Source: Jiangella endophytica (lineage in GTDB: Bacteria; Actinomycetota; Actinomycetes; Jiangellales; Jiangellaceae). Taken from it: 64,000 bases of DNA. Where the stretch lies: NCBI RefSeq assembly GCF_003427025.1, contig NZ_QVAI01000006.1, forward strand, positions 186,001 to 250,000, written 5' to 3'. The notes under the pieces are model-generated. The model saw nothing but the letters and a program-made list of their open reading frames with translations, was not told where the DNA came from and did no database searches. Made by a program: the position numbers and the translations under genes. Within the stretch, counting starts at the first letter, position 1, and each line of letters starts with the position of its first letter. Shown here one piece after another: positions 13,206 through 17,415 of the stretch.

Positions 13206-13312
13206 GAGGGACAAGCCTAGGCCTTATGCGCACCTCCTCGTTCACGGGCAGCCGCGCACCGGTTGCCGCCGATGCGACGGAACTGTCACGCTGGAGGGTG
13301 GAGGTGAGGTCG

Positions 13313-13666
13313 ATGAGCACTGTGGAAGTCGTCGACCGTGGCGCCCGCGAGATCGTCGTGTTCCTCTCCGGCGTGGTCGGCACCGACCCCGACGACGCGT
13401 TCGGCCCGGCCATCGACCGGGTCGACCGCCTGGAGCAGCTGAACGCGCTCAACCACGTGGTCGTCAACATGCACCAGGTCACCGGCATGAGCGACGCCGC
13501 CTTCGAGTTCCTGCGCGAGCTGTCCTCGCGCGGCCGGTCGAAGGGATTCGAGGTGTCATTCGCCGCCGTGAGCGGGCCGGCGCACCGGGCCATCGAAGCG
13601 CACGGCTGGTCGTTCGTCGAGCACAGCCCCGATGTGCCGGCCGGGCGGCGCGACTACCGCTCGTAG
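13313..13666 (+). CDS. STAS-domain-like protein
   Basis: About 117 residues resembling anti-sigma-factor antagonist/STAS folds. It reads EIVVFLSGVVGTDPDDAFGPAIDRV, then HVVVNMHQVTGMSDAAFEFLREL (helix 2 with the Ser seen near the switch position), then FEVSFAAVSGPAHRAIEAHGW. The ATG at 13313 follows GGAGGTGAGG, a strong ribosome site; a longer frame from 13226 has none. No anti-sigma kinase or phosphatase is adjacent, so the partner is unknown. It diverges from lysS and runs convergently into the epimerase gene, overlapping its end by 13 bases. Confidence 0.6.
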   Translation: MSTVEVVDRGAREIVVFLSGVVGTDPDDAFGPAIDRVDRLEQLNALNHVVVNMHQVTGMSDAAFEFLRELSSRGRSKGFEVSFAAVSGPAHRAIEAHGWSFVEHSPDVPAGRRDYRS

Positions 13667-14586
13667 AACCCCTGCCGCCAGCTCGCGTGCTCCGGCTTCC
13701 AGCCGAGCTCGCGCCGCGCCTTGGCGTTCGACGAGCCGCGCAGTGCGGTCATGAACGTCACGCCGAACTCGCCGATCAGCGGCCGGGCCAGCCGGGCCGG
13801 CAGCCTGAGCGGCTTCTTCGCGCCGATCGCGGCGGCCAGCGTGGTCAGGACGTCCGCGGCCGGCGCGGGATCGTCGTCGACGATGTTGTAGACGCCCGGC
13901 GCGCCGCCCTCGATCGCGGCCAGCGTGGCGCGAGCGGCGTCGTCGATGTGGAGGATCGACCACACCGCGGTGCCGCCGCCCACGATCGGCAGCCGGCGCT
14001 TGCGCAGCAGGTCCGCGACATCGCCGGTCAAGCCGGTTCCGTGGCCGTAGAAGCTGCCGTAGCGCAGCGCCAGCCCGTCGATGCCCGAGGTGCCGGTGGT
14101 GGCCTGCTCGACGTACTGGATCGCGCGCAACGCCTCGACGGCGCCGGTCGGCGGAGGCGAGGCCAGCGGTTCGTCCTCGGTCTTCACCGGGCCGCCGATG
14201 CGCGCGTTGGGCCAGCCGGTGTAGCTCTGCGCGACGAAGCGGGTGGCGCCGGCCTCCAGCGCCGCGGCGAGCAGGTGATCGGTGCCCTCGGTCCGCAGCA
14301 GGTTGGTGGCGTGGAAGCCCTTGTCGATGCGCTTCAGGTCGCCCATCCCGTCGCCCAGCGCGGTCTGCTGGTGGACGACGACGTCCGGCCTCGCGGCGCG
14401 AACCGCGGCCTGGACACTGGCGGCGTCCAGCCCGTCCATCACCGCACCCTCGGCGCCGGCGGCGCGCAGCTCGGCGATCTTGGACTCCGACCGGGTGGTG
14501 CCGGTCACCTCGTGTCCAGCCTGCACCAGCAGCGGGACGAGGGAGCGTCCCAAGGCGCCGGTGGCGCCGGCCAGGAAGACTCGCAT
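13654..14586 (-). CDS. NAD-dependent epimerase/dehydratase-family protein, ECF41 target
   Basis: 310 residues, extended SDR fold. The nucleotide loop is FLAGATGALGRSLVPLLVQAGHEVTGTTR. Other family positions are a DVVVHQQTAL strand, VAQSYTGW, a LRYGSFYGHGTG segment and WSILHIDDAARATLAAIEGG. The usual YxxxK pair is not obvious, since the helix reads ALRAIQYVEQ, so catalysis may differ. It is divergent from an ECF41 sigma factor and preceded by that sigma group's promoter consensus. That makes it the COE-type partner gene (carboxymuconolactone decarboxylase, oxidoreductase or epimerase) typical of this group. The metabolic substrate is unknown. Confidence 0.85.
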   Translation of the reverse strand: MRVFLAGATGALGRSLVPLLVQAGHEVTGTTRSESKIAELRAAGAEGAVMDGLDAASVQAAVRAARPDVVVHQQTALGDGMGDLKRIDKGFHATNLLRTEGTDHLLAAALEAGATRFVAQSYTGWPNARIGGPVKTEDEPLASPPPTGAVEALRAIQYVEQATTGTSGIDGLALRYGSFYGHGTGLTGDVADLLRKRRLPIVGGGTAVWSILHIDDAARATLAAIEGGAPGVYNIVDDDPAPAADVLTTLAAAIGAKKPLRLPARLARPLIGEFGVTFMTALRGSSNAKARRELGWKPEHASWRQGFYER

Positions 14587-14619
14587 GTCGTTCTCCTCTT
14601 CTCGTGTCCTGCCCCCTCC

Positions 14620-14646
14620 GACGAGGGCACCCGCCGTCCTGTGACA
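14620..14646 (-). promoter_or_regulatory. ECF41-type promoter driving the epimerase gene
   Basis: Read on the minus strand, TGTCACA (14646-14640) is followed by exactly 16 bases and then CGTC (14623-14620). This is the -35/-10 pair described for ECF41 sigma factors. It lies about 34 bases upstream of the epimerase ATG and points away from the sigma gene. A GAGGAG ribosome site follows. Confidence 0.85.
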
Positions 14647-14657
14647 GGATCGGCGGC

Positions 14658-15569
14658 GTGACCGATCTCGCGGTCGCCCACGACGACCTGCGGCCGCTGA
14701 TGTTCTCGGTGGCCTACCGCATGCTGGGCAGCGTCAGTGAGGCCGAGGACGTCGTGCAGGAGGCGTTCCTGCGCATGTACCGCGCCGGCGAGTCCGGCAC
14801 CCGGGCCGACAACCCCGAGGCGTACGCCACCACCGTCACCACCCGGCTGGCCATCGACGCACTGCGCTCGGCCCGGCACCGGCGCGAGCAGTACGTCGGG
14901 TCGTGGCTGCCGGAGCCGCTGCTGGCCGGCGACGACGACCCCGCCCGGCGGGTCGAGCAGACCGAGTCGCTGTCGACGGCGTTCCTCGTGGTGCTCGAGA
15001 CGCTCTCGCCGGTCGAGCGGGCGGTGTTCCTGCTGCGCGAGGTGTTCGGCTACGCCTACGACGAGATCGCCGCGATCGTGGAGCGCAGCGAGGCCAACTG
15101 CCGGCAACTGATGACCCGCGCCCGCAAGCACATCGAGGCGCGGCGCCCGCGGTTCGAGCCGTCGCCCGATCGCCGGGACGAGCTGGCCCGCACCTTCCTC
15201 GCCGCCATGAACGACGGCGACGTCGGCGCGCTGGAACGGCTGCTCGCCGAGGACGTCGTGTTCGAGGGCGACGGCGGCGGCAAGACCGCGGCGGTGCGCA
15301 AGCCCCTGGTCGGCGCGCTGCAGGTGGCGCGGTTCCTGGCCAACCTCGGCCGCACGGGCGCGCAGATCGGGGCGACGGTGGCGCCGGTGACGGTGAACGG
15401 CCAGCCCGGCGCCCGGGTGTCCGGGCCCGACGGCGCCGTGGTCGGCGTGCTGTCGCTGACCATCGTCGACGGCCGCATCACCGGCGTGCACAACCAGATC
15501 AACCCCGACAAGCTGCAGCACCTGGGGCCGGTCGGCGACCTCAACGCCCTGCTCCGCGCCCCGAAATGA
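14658..15569 (+). CDS. ECF41-group sigma factor with C-terminal SnoaL-like domain (SigJ-like)
   Basis: 303 residues. Region sigma2 is MFSVAYRMLGSVSEAEDVVQEAFLRMYRA and sigma4 is LSPVERAVFLLREVFGYAYDEIAAIVERSEANCRQLMTRARKHIE. A roughly 120-residue SnoaL-like tail follows. All three ECF41 signatures are visible: WLPEP in the linker, DGGGK in the tail and NPDKL near the end. In this group the tail replaces an anti-sigma factor and tunes activity. I chose the GTG at 14658 because the protein then begins at the conserved sigma2 boundary; an upstream GTG/ATG frame from 14604 would overlap the divergent promoter. Confidence 0.93.
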   Translation: MTDLAVAHDDLRPLMFSVAYRMLGSVSEAEDVVQEAFLRMYRAGESGTRADNPEAYATTVTTRLAIDALRSARHRREQYVGSWLPEPLLAGDDDPARRVEQTESLSTAFLVVLETLSPVERAVFLLREVFGYAYDEIAAIVERSEANCRQLMTRARKHIEARRPRFEPSPDRRDELARTFLAAMNDGDVGALERLLAEDVVFEGDGGGKTAAVRKPLVGALQVARFLANLGRTGAQIGATVAPVTVNGQPGARVSGPDGAVVGVLSLTIVDGRITGVHNQINPDKLQHLGPVGDLNALLRAPK

Positions 15570-15742
15570 TCACGTTGAGTGGGGGTGTTCCCGCTCTACC
15601 ACCCATGCATGCCTAGTGGGACGTGAACTCGCCTGGGCCGGGCTCGGAAAGCGCTTGCCGCACACACCACCAGGCGTTCTCACGCTTCACCAGGCATGCA
15701 TGGGTGGTAGAGCGAACACACCCCACTGAACGTGATCATTTC
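15563..15742. repeat. Long inverted repeat between convergent genes, dispersed palindrome copy C
   Basis: The left arm 15563-15626 begins GAAATGATCACGTTGAGTGG and continues through CGCTCTACCACCCATGCATG. The right arm 15681-15742 is its reverse complement with a few mismatches and about 54 loop bases. Each arm contains the stop codon of its neighbour: the sigma gene TGA at 15567-15569 on the left, and part of the coaX stop at 15741-15743 on the right. A very stable hairpin and bidirectional terminator is expected. Confidence 0.8.
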
Positions 15743-16520
15743 AGGCGGGGTGGTTGCGGTCGAAGACCAGCCGCAGGCCCATCAGCGTCAGCCACGGCTC
15801 GTGGAACTCGATCGTCGCCGCCTCGTCCAGCACCAACGGCGCCAGCCCACCCGTCCCGATCACCGTGACACCGTCGATTCCCACCCCCAGCTCCGCCGCC
15901 ATGCGGGTGACGATGCCGTCGACCTGGGCGCTGAAGCCGTACAGTGCGCCGGACTGCAGCGCCTCGACCGTGTTCTTGGCGATGACCGACCGGGGCCGGA
16001 CCAGTTCGACCCGGCGCAGCTGGGCCGCGGCGTTGCGCAGTGCCTCCAGCGACACGTCGATGCCGGGAGCGATCGCGCCGCCGATGTACTCACCGCGCGC
16101 CGAGACGACGTCGAACGTGGTGGCGGTGCCGAAGTCGACGATGATGCACGGCCGCCCCGTGCCGTACTTGTGCATGGCGGCGAGCGCGTTGACGATGCGG
16201 TCGGTGCCGACCTCGCGCGGGTTGTCCATGAGGATCGGCACGCCGGTCTTGACCCCCGGCTCGACCAGCAGCGCCGGCACGTCGGCGAAGTAGCGCTCCG
16301 TCAGCCACCGCACCTGGCGCTGCACCACGGGGACCGTCGAGCAGATGGCGACGCCGTCGATCGGCTCGTCGGTCCCCGCGAACAGCCCGCGCAGCAGCGC
16401 CATGAACTCGTCGGTGGTGCGCGACGGCACGGTCGCCACGCGCCAGTGGTGCCGCACCTCGAGGCCGTCGAGCAGCCCGATGACGGTCTCGGTGTTACCG
16501 ACGTCGATCGCCAGCAGCAT
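15741..16520 (-). CDS. coaX: Type III pantothenate kinase
   Basis: 259 residues, normal CoaX length. The N-terminal ASKHA phosphate loop is MLLAIDVGNTETVIGLLDG. The catalytic-site strand PREVGTDRIVNALAAMHKYG includes the conserved Asp. IIVDFGTATTFDVV and GGAIAPGIDVSLEAL complete the fold, and VIGTGGLAPLV lies near the end. It phosphorylates pantothenate in the first CoA step and, as a type III enzyme, is usually insensitive to CoA feedback. It is the last gene of the panC-nadB-nadC-coaX run, starting 4 bases after the nadC stop. Its own stop lies inside the long inverted repeat. Confidence 0.95.
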   Translation of the reverse strand: MLLAIDVGNTETVIGLLDGLEVRHHWRVATVPSRTTDEFMALLRGLFAGTDEPIDGVAICSTVPVVQRQVRWLTERYFADVPALLVEPGVKTGVPILMDNPREVGTDRIVNALAAMHKYGTGRPCIIVDFGTATTFDVVSARGEYIGGAIAPGIDVSLEALRNAAAQLRRVELVRPRSVIAKNTVEALQSGALYGFSAQVDGIVTRMAAELGVGIDGVTVIGTGGLAPLVLDEAATIEFHEPWLTLMGLRLVFDRNHPA

Positions 16521-16524
16521 GCGC

Positions 16525-17415
16525 TCAGTGTGCCTCGACGGCGACCACGTCGAGGCCGAGGTCCAGGGCCTGGACCGAGTGCGTCAGCGCCCCGGTGGAC
16601 AGGTAGTCGACGCCGGTGGCGGCGTAGGCACCGGCCTGCACCAGCGTCAGCCCGCCACTGACCTCGAGCCGGGCCCGTCCGTCGACGACCTTCACGGCCT
16701 CGAGCACGTCGTCGACGCTGAAGTTGTCCAGCAGGACGAGGTCGGCGCCGGCCTCGACCGCCTCGCGGGCGCCGTCGACGTCGTCGACCTCGACCTCGAC
16801 GGCGATGCCCGGGTAGGCCCGCCGGACCGCCTGGAAGGCCGCCGTGATGCCGCCGGCCGCGGCGATGTGGTTGTCCTTGATCAGCGCCGACTCGGACAGC
16901 GTCGACCGGTGGTTGACCCCGCCGCCCACCCGCACCGCGTACTTCTCCAGCGGGCGCAGCAGCGGCGTGGTCTTGCGGGTGTCGCGGACGGCGGCCGGGG
17001 TGCCGGCCAGTGCGTCGACCCACGCTCGGGTGGCGGTGGCGATGCCGGACAGCCGGCTGGCGAGGTTCAGTGCGGTCCGCTCGGCCAGCAGCAGCTGGCG
17101 GGTGCGGCCGTGCACGGTCAGGACCTTCGACCCGGCCTGGATCTCCGCGCCGTCGGCGGCGTGCCGCTCGATCTCGACGCCGGCGTCGGTGGCCGCGAAG
17201 ACCGCCTGGGCCACCGGCAGCCCGGCGAGCACGCCGGCCTCACGCGCGCCGAGGACGGCGACCGCCAGCTGGCCGGCGGGCACCGTGGCGGCGGTGGTGA
17301 CGTCCTCGCCGCCGCCGAGGTCCTCTTCCAGGGTGGCCCGGACGAGGTCGTCGACGTATCGGGGATCGAGACCCGCCTCGCTCAGCGCGAGTGCCACGGG
17401 CTCGGGCAAACTCAT
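16525..17415 (-). CDS. nadC: Nicotinate-nucleotide pyrophosphorylase (quinolinate phosphoribosyltransferase)
   Basis: 296 residues. Family motifs are ALEEDLGGGEDVTT-like VRATLEEDLGGGEDVTTAA, LLAERTALNLASRLSGIAT, VRDTRKTTPLLRPLEKYAVRVGGGVNHR (substrate-binding Arg/Lys cluster), LIKDNHIAAAGG and VDYLSTGALTHSV. It converts quinolinate and PRPP to nicotinate mononucleotide in de novo NAD synthesis. It starts 2 bases after the nadB stop and is 4 bases from coaX, so the three are almost certainly co-transcribed. No nadA is present in the window, so quinolinate synthase must be encoded elsewhere. Confidence 0.96.
   Translation of the reverse strand: MSLPEPVALALSEAGLDPRYVDDLVRATLEEDLGGGEDVTTAATVPAGQLAVAVLGAREAGVLAGLPVAQAVFAATDAGVEIERHAADGAEIQAGSKVLTVHGRTRQLLLAERTALNLASRLSGIATATRAWVDALAGTPAAVRDTRKTTPLLRPLEKYAVRVGGGVNHRSTLSESALIKDNHIAAAGGITAAFQAVRRAYPGIAVEVEVDDVDGAREAVEAGADLVLLDNFSVDDVLEAVKVVDGRARLEVSGGLTLVQAGAYAATGVDYLSTGALTHSVQALDLGLDVVAVEAH

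What the first reader, a model, noticed from the sequence alone, without database searches (positions are those of the whole stretch)
14587..15569. Complete ECF41 module: sigma factor, exact promoter and epimerase target
The sigma protein has WLPEP, DGGGK and NPDKL, the ECF41 marks. The divergent epimerase carries TGTCACA-N16-CGTC, the published ECF41 consensus, at 14646-14620. The sigma gene's own upstream region shows no copy in its direction, so it is apparently not autoregulated through this site. The physiological role of ECF41-COE pairs is still largely unknown.
Basis: partly seen in the sequence, partly recalled or inferred. Interest (0 to 1): 0.6.

Follow-up and report, generated by a model that had tools for sequence, protein, structure and literature searches.

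The report
ECF41 sigma factor and its target
An unnamed actinobacterium carries a textbook ECF41 sigma factor, a gene switch with a built-in off domain, beside the reductase-like gene it should switch on; the pair is ordinary in kind, but its two promoters seem to overlap so that using one would block the other.

Summary
The ECF41/SigJ gene is 14658-15569 (+); the divergent SDR ('epimerase') gene is 13654-14586 (-). TGTCACA-N16-CGTC lies at 14646-14620 (-), 33 nt from the SDR start. An orthologous locus is found in 19 of 22 genomes of the GTDB family; all 19 keep this arrangement (18 exact motifs, one TGTCATA). None of 28 divergent relatives has an ECF41 motif facing the sigma gene. It belongs to the known ECF41-COE kind (Wecke 2012).

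(1) In 19 of 19 family loci TGN-NNNNAT sits 6-7 nt before the sigma start codon, as for a leaderless gene with an extended -10. In the genus (12 of 12) that -10 overlaps the target's -35 by 2 nt, so the promoters should exclude each other (inferred).
(2) The 'epimerase' lacks the SDR Tyr/Lys pair in 42 of 42 homologues; its nearest named model is the diazo-reductase AvaA7, below cut-off.
(3) Genus-wide the exact motif is enriched (120 sites, reversed control 48) and marks unlinked genes: an FAD oxidase (11 of 12 orthologues) and an SDR (6 of 6).

The parts
13654..14586 (-). Target gene: extended-SDR-fold NAD(P)-binding protein ('epimerase', COE), 310 aa, without the YxxxK pair; SD AGAGGAG just before ATG 14586
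   Evidence: fold; missing Tyr/Lys
14620..14646 (-). ECF41 promoter of the target gene: TGTCACA (14640-14646), 16-nt spacer, CGTC (14620-14623); start of transcript expected near 14612-14614 (inferred)
   Evidence: conservation
14642..14650 (+). Predicted extended -10 of the sigma gene: TGA (14642-14644) and CAGGAT (14645-14650), 7 nt before GTG 14658; overlaps the target's -35
   Evidence: TGN-NNNNAT at 6-7 nt in 19 of 19 family loci; inferred promoter
14658..15569 (+). ECF41 / SigJ-type sigma factor, 303 aa: sigma2 (residues 11-73), WLPEP linker, sigma4 (109-159), SnoaL_2-like extension (178-274), DGGGK, NPDKL
15567..15743 (.). Long imperfect inverted repeat between the convergent sigma and coaX genes; a copy of a dispersed repeat family; its first bases give the sigma stop codon. 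Not part of the ECF41 module

Best explanation
The locus is a two-gene ECF41 module (the confidence given is for this core). The sigma factor is made from its own promoter, which looks like an extended -10 placed so that the transcript starts at or next to the start codon (leaderless; about 0.6). Its SnoaL_2-like extension holds it inactive through the WLPEP-NPDKL contact until a small molecule is sensed. The active sigma factor then directs RNA polymerase to TGTCACA-N16-CGTC and switches on the divergent SDR gene. In this genus the sigma gene's -10 overlaps the target's -35, so a polymerase on the target promoter should block the sigma gene: a self-limiting circuit instead of the positive feedback expected of tandem COE-ECF operons (about 0.45). 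The SDR may pass hydride from NADPH to a reactive compound instead of epimerising a sugar (about 0.3). Shown here by sequence: gene identities, promoter, conservation, missing catalytic pair. Taken from published work on other ECF41s: promoter use, inhibition by the extension. Inferred: leaderless start, mutual exclusion, chemistry, signal.
For: TIGR02957 345 bits (cut-off 323) and PRK09636 SigJ 337 (cut-off 271); SigJ structure 5xe7 E 3.8e-49; SnoaL_2 31.2 bits (cut-off 27). W83, P85-P87, D205-G208, P283 and K285 are invariant in a 26-sequence alignment. Motif before the target in 19 of 19 family loci, 18 exact, and in Nocardioides, Mumia, Agromyces and Solirubrobacter loci. No motif facing the sigma gene in 28 of 28 divergent loci (loose pattern, 250 nt). 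TGN-NNNNAT 6-7 nt before ATG/GTG in 19 of 19, no Shine-Dalgarno-like string in 11 of 19. Promoter use and extension results: PMC3426412, sections 18 (part 1), 21, 22 (part 1), 27 and 30 read. AvaA7-model relatives within 1 kb of an ECF41 gene in 45 of 54 cases in the family.
Against: No expression data. A plain sigma-70 scan finds no promoter in 14500-15800, and the predicted -10 (CAGGAT here, TTGTAT in sister genera) is not a good TANNNT. 8 of 19 loci have an AGGA/GGAG/GAGG string that could be a ribosome site. In the genus the TG and CA of the predicted -10 region are also part of the ECF41 -35, so only the AT is independent; two invariant columns at a neutral rate of 22% is weak by itself. 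The family loci are related, so 19 of 19 is not 19 independent cases. In sister genera the gap is 79-199 nt, so the overlap belongs to the genus only. The AvaA7 model score (272.8) is below its cut-off (400).
Confidence: 0.9

Rival explanations
1. Same ECF41 module, but the overlap of the two promoters has no regulatory meaning: the sigma gene is transcribed from further upstream or at a constant low level, and there is no feedback. (A rival to the interlock, not to the core.)
For: No canonical sigma-70 promoter found; in sister genera the two elements lie apart, so exclusion is not needed for the module to persist.
Against: The AT of the predicted -10 is invariant in 12 of 12 genus members although it is not part of the ECF41 motif, and the 6-7 nt spacing to the start codon is kept in 19 of 19 family loci.
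Confidence: 0.4
2. The neighbouring SDR gene is not the only, or not the main, business of this sigma factor: several ECF41 paralogues share one promoter consensus and form a cross-talking network that includes unlinked genes. (A rival to the one-target reading.)
For: 12 near-full-length ECF41-like matches in the genome, 35-100% identical, one with a stop inside the match. Exact motif: 120 sites in 12 genomes against 48 for the reversed control; conserved before an FAD oxidase (11 of 12 orthologues), an SDR (6 of 6), an MMPL gene and ECF41 genes.
Against: The stretch before CGTC in the FAD set (mostly ATCCGTC) resembles, by eye, the autopromoter of another paralogue (C17 type), so pairs may be insulated. 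The two nearest FAD orthologues outside the genus (56-57% identical) lack the motif. Published ECF41s of R. sphaeroides and S. meliloti had one target.
Confidence: 0.35
3. The exact TGTCACA-N16-CGTC is a chance match.
For: 23 of 100 shuffled windows hold at least one match.
Against: 11 of 11 bases conserved in 12 of 12 genus members against 22% of four-fold sites; motif start 52-63 nt before the target's start codon in 18 of 19 family loci, 92 nt in the other.
Confidence: 0.01

Closest known systems
ECF41 loci of Bacillus licheniformis and Rhodobacter sphaeroides (Wecke et al. 2012, PMC3426412)
   Same: Same sigma architecture, WLPEP motif, promoter TGTCACA-16 nt-CGTC, short leader of the target, COE neighbour as target
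   Different: Those targets are carboxymuconolactone decarboxylases; here a divergent SDR. In that survey 36 of 55 divergent loci also had the motif before the ECF gene (Table 4); here 0 of 28 divergent relatives do
Mycobacterium tuberculosis SigJ (structure 5xe7)
   Same: Homologue over sigma2, sigma4 and the SnoaL_2 extension
   Different: Gene context in M. tuberculosis not examined here
Tandem COE-ECF41 loci of other actinobacteria, one Chloroflexota and one Dormiibacterota record (L029-L045), and this genome's own paralogues on C34 and C7
   Same: Homologous SDR (50-55% identical in the 12 full-length tandem loci among L029-L045) and sigma factor; a loose motif before the SDR in 7 of those 12 and before both own paralogues
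   Different: Sigma gene is downstream of the SDR on the same strand, so it would be switched on by its own promoter; other branches of the sigma tree
AvaA7, NADPH-dependent 3-diazoavenalumate reductase (PMC10777205, passages read)
   Same: The SDR's best NCBIfam model by far: 272.8 bits against 52 for the next
   Different: Below the family's curated cut-off of 400; the window was not searched for an ava-like cluster

Membership tests
ECF41 sigma factors | sigma2 and sigma4 with a conserved WLPEP in the linker | tested here: met
   WLPEP at residue 83 between Pfam r2 (11-73) and r4_2 (109-159). Feature from PMC3426412 section 21
ECF41 sigma factors | C-terminal extension of about 100 aa, SnoaL_2-like, with conserved motifs | tested here: met
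SnoaL_2 31.2 bits, residues 178-274; DGGGK 205 and NPDKL 282.
ECF41 sigma factors | Curated models SigX4 (TIGR02957) / SigJ (PRK09636) | tested here: met
   345.4 against cut-off 323.25 and 337.4 against 271
ECF41 sigma factors | COE gene next door preceded by TGTCACA-16+/-1-CGTC | tested here: met
   consensus from PMC3426412
ECF41 sigma factors | No anti-sigma gene next door | tested here: inconclusive
   Direct neighbours are the SDR and coaX; one gene further lies a STAS-domain protein, a domain known from anti-anti-sigma factors (recalled)
ECF41 sigma factors | Sigma factor activates the COE promoter; extension inhibits it | not testable with these tools
   Needs reporter assays
Classical SDR epimerases / dehydratases | YxxxK catalytic pair | tested here: not met
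   No Tyr and no Lys at the two positions in 42 of 42 homologues (one has a gap at the Tyr position); positions set by the profile alignment to 2p5u. YxxxK as the SDR mark is recalled
AvaA7 equivalogue (NF058621) | Score over the curated cut-off of 400 bits | tested here: not met
   272.8 bits; 0 of 22 family genomes and 0 of 396 phylum genomes (five candidates scored per genome) over the cut-off

The most novel reading that the evidence does not exclude
In this genus the ECF41 sigma gene is leaderless and its promoter is interlocked with the promoter it serves, giving a self-limiting ECF circuit in place of the usual positive feedback. The target is a non-canonical SDR that reduces a reactive (for example diazo- or quinone-like) compound sensed by the SnoaL_2 extension. 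Sister ECF41 paralogues drive unlinked oxidoreductase genes from the same promoter consensus.
Probability: 0.2. Interest if true: 0.6.

Novelty: new member of a known kind. Interest (0 to 1): 0.38.

Why it matters
ECF41 sigma factors are widespread (about 400 proteins from 10 phyla in PMC3426412), and that paper knew no inducing condition for the two it studied. This locus gives two handles: a divergent arrangement, kept across most of a GTDB family and beyond, whose feedback sign can be read from 5'-end mapping, and a target enzyme whose missing SDR catalytic pair and nearest named model (AvaA7) suggest reactive electrophiles as signal or substrate. The conserved sites before unlinked genes would also test how far the one-target rule for ECF41 holds in genomes with a dozen paralogues.

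Tried and rejected
Chance promoter match: rejected by conservation. Upstream sigma start at 14604: rejected, because indels break that frame in congeners. Hidden autoregulatory copy of the motif: none with a loose pattern within 250 nt in 28 of 28 divergent loci. True AvaA7 equivalogue: below cut-off. I looked for the motif before AvaA7-like genes not next to an ECF41 gene in 5 of the 9 such genes: one loose match with an off-consensus -10 (GGTC), four without. Rfam: nothing at gathering scores in 13600-16600. DnaJ-like gene set with the exact motif in 8 genomes: left open, since most of the spacer is conserved in 7 of the 8 and, where a start was called (6 of 8), it is 2-32 nt away. Naming the organism: not achieved. 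A comparison of named Jiangella and Phytoactinopolyspora records with this genome's paralogous loci gave only 64-67% identity, so the guess in my notes that the genus is probably Jiangella is not supported and is dropped.

Rows dropped and limits: L068 (partial 36% match, 3.3 kb away) was left out of the divergent count. L026 is divergent with a 933-nt gap and was kept. L028 gave no motif because its SDR start was misplaced; its printed sequence shows CGTCACA-N16-CGTC (by eye). In one search three own-genome minus-strand rows of eight own rows were trimmed by one base, so their distances are off by one. The gene caller is a simple codon-usage score and its starts are approximate. The 12 sites of the window's own SDR and its orthologues were not put through (108 of 120 were). 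The reversed control was classified for 30 of 48 sites; it contains copies of a dispersed repeat, which raises the control count. In one search I compared the 54 AvaA7-like places with the 51 family ECF41 places at E 1.3e-79 or better; weaker ECF41 genes were not in that comparison. In the family 3 of 22 genomes have no orthologous locus: G012 (tandem type only) and G013, G014 (no match at E 1e-60; 81% and 75% complete).

Full report
WHAT IS THERE. The window is part of an unnamed 7.85-Mb actinobacterial genome (G000, contig 56). The sigma gene runs from GTG 14658 to 15569 and encodes 303 aa. It has Pfam sigma2 (11-73), sigma4 (109-159) and SnoaL_2 (178-274), passes the curated SigX4 and SigJ models, and matches the M. 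tuberculosis SigJ structure over residues 9-286 (5xe7, E 3.8e-49). WLPEP, DGGGK and NPDKL begin at 83, 205 and 282. Divergently, 13654-14586 (-) encodes a 310-aa 'epimerase' (Pfam Epimerase). TGTCACA-N16-CGTC is at 14646-14620 on the minus strand, 33 nt before that gene's ATG.

MORE THAN CHANCE. The exact string alone is not decisive (23 of 100 shuffled windows hold one). Conservation is. The sigma gene has an ortholog (77-90% identical) in 11 of 11 congeners searched and one of 58-68% in 7 of the 10 other genomes of the family; of the remaining three, G012 has only tandem-type relatives, and G013 and G014, 81% and 75% complete, have no match at E 1e-60. All 19 loci are divergent with the same SDR and carry the motif before it, 18 exactly and one as TGTCATA. 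In the 12 genus members all 11 motif bases are invariant, against 50 of 223 four-fold degenerate sites in the two genes. coaX follows the sigma gene in 19 of 19 loci, which speaks for an old, vertically kept locus.

AUTOREGULATION. No ECF41-like motif (loose pattern, 250 nt) faces the sigma gene in any of 28 divergent loci. In the published survey 36 of 55 divergent loci had one before the ECF gene (PMC3426412 Table 4). Tandem COE-ECF loci, where the sigma gene would be co-transcribed from the COE promoter, fall on other branches of the sigma tree (27 divergent and 15 tandem rows, 3 changes; nine forks are drawn open, and the program warns of long branches).

HOW THE SIGMA GENE MAY BE EXPRESSED. 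In 19 of 19 family loci TGN-NNNNAT lies 6-7 nt before the ATG or GTG of the sigma gene. In the genus it reads TGA-CANNAT, in the sister genera TGG- or TGC-TTNNAT. 11 of 19 loci have no Shine-Dalgarno-like string there, while the SDR gene has AGAGGAG. I read this as an extended -10 and a leaderless transcript (inference). In the genus this -10 (14645-14650) shares two bases with the -35 of the SDR promoter (14640-14646), so the two promoters face each other across the same DNA and should not be used at once. In the other genera the gap between the genes is 79-199 nt, so the interlock is specific to the genus. Against this: a standard promoter scan found nothing, the hexamers are poor, and in the genus the TG and CA are also bases of the ECF41 -35, so only the invariant AT is independent evidence there.

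THE TARGET. The SDR model is confident (pLDDT 91), and its best fold matches are UDP-glucose 4-epimerases and other extended SDRs. Yet the positions of the catalytic Tyr and Lys, set by the profile alignment to 2p5u, hold neither residue in 42 of 42 homologues. The best named model is AvaA7, an enzyme that replaces a diazo group by hydride from NADPH (PMC10777205, passages), at 272.8 bits, below the cut-off of 400. In the family 45 of 54 AvaA7-model matches lie within 1 kb of an ECF41 gene from a list of 51. So the COE partner here is a non-canonical SDR; reduction of a reactive compound is a plausible guess, not shown. Whether AvaA7 itself lacks the pair was not tested.

OTHER SITES. The genome has 12 near-full-length ECF41-like matches and 9 exact sites, where the reversed control gives 7, so in this genome alone the count is no evidence. 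Across 12 genus genomes there are 120 exact sites against 48. Of the 108 sites not belonging to the window's SDR or its orthologues, 50 end within 80 nt before a predicted start, 36 lie inside predicted genes, 8 lie 81-150 nt away and 14 elsewhere. Of 30 control sites classified, 2 are within 80 nt; Fisher p 3e-5, sites shared by descent being counted as separate. Clusters shared by many genomes: ECF41 genes themselves (17 sites, 9 genomes); an MMPL transporter divergent from an ECF41 gene (6 genomes); an FAD_binding_4/BBE oxidase with no ECF41 gene among the called neighbours in the own-genome stretch (11 of 12 genus orthologues exact, the twelfth TGTCACG; the two nearest outside the genus have none); and an SDR likewise without one (6 of 6 genus orthologues, none of 7 weaker relatives checked). 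Clusters inside coding sequence also occur, in 2-3 genomes each. In the FAD set the spacer varies while TGTCACA and CGTC stay, so these look like real ECF41-type promoters on unlinked genes. Which paralogue drives them is unknown. A wider ECF41 regulon is not unheard of: a review cites an Azospirillum ECF41 controlling motility (title seen in a reference list; paper not read).

Published truncations: 204 residues of Ecf41Bli is about 20-fold more active than full length, 167 residues inactive (PMC3426412). A cut after NPDKL here would remove only the last 17 of 303 residues. The useful cut is near residue 205, before NPDKL. PMC7730460 (passages) describes NPDKL as the link to the WLPEP linker motif.

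VERDICT. A sound, ordinary ECF41-COE module: new member of a known kind, with a genus-specific promoter overlap and a doubtfully named enzyme as the interesting remainder. Literature searches. Three papers that bear on this group, looked up by id, are not held, so I make no claim that the overlap or the unlinked targets are unpublished.

The confidence of the best explanation is unchanged at 0.9 but is now stated to be for the core module, with lower odds given for each inferred step; no other odds were changed.

Noticed in passing
window 15567-15743: Long imperfect inverted repeat between the convergent sigma and coaX genes, a copy of a dispersed family: 84 matching stretches in this genome (palindromic copies count twice; not all candidates were scored), found in 8 of 12 genus genomes. 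Of 20 own-genome copies fetched, 13 lie between convergent genes, 7 in tandem, 0 divergent; in 11 of the 13 both ends are within 30 nt of the called gene ends. Here and in G003 its first bases supply the sigma stop codon.
   Followed up: partly
L142 3113-3139 and orthologues L273-L283: ECF41-type promoter conserved (11 of 12 exact) before an FAD_binding_4/BBE oxidase gene with no ECF41 gene among the called neighbours in the own-genome stretch.
   Followed up: partly
L134 3155-6319: ECF41 paralogue with back-to-back exact motifs, one before the sigma gene itself and one before a divergent MMPL transporter; same in 6 of 12 genus genomes, this one included.
   Followed up: partly
L141 2666-6775: Two exact motifs 2.7 kb apart, before a DoxX-like gene and before a short-chain dehydrogenase; the SDR site is kept in 6 of 6 genus orthologues.
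   Followed up: partly
window 13226-13666: STAS-domain protein convergent with, and overlapping, the end of the SDR gene; found beside the locus in 11 of 19 family loci within the fetched flanks.
   Followed up: partly
G008 and G009, e.g. L405, L421: A separate dispersed 26-nt repeat (CTGCGTGATCGATGTGAGAACACTGT and close variants) turned up in the reversed-pattern control.
   Followed up: no
L144 3085-3111 and 7 other genus genomes: Exact ECF41 motif, with most of its spacer also conserved in 7 of the 8, shortly before a DnaJ-like gene; promoter or chance could not be told.
   Followed up: partly
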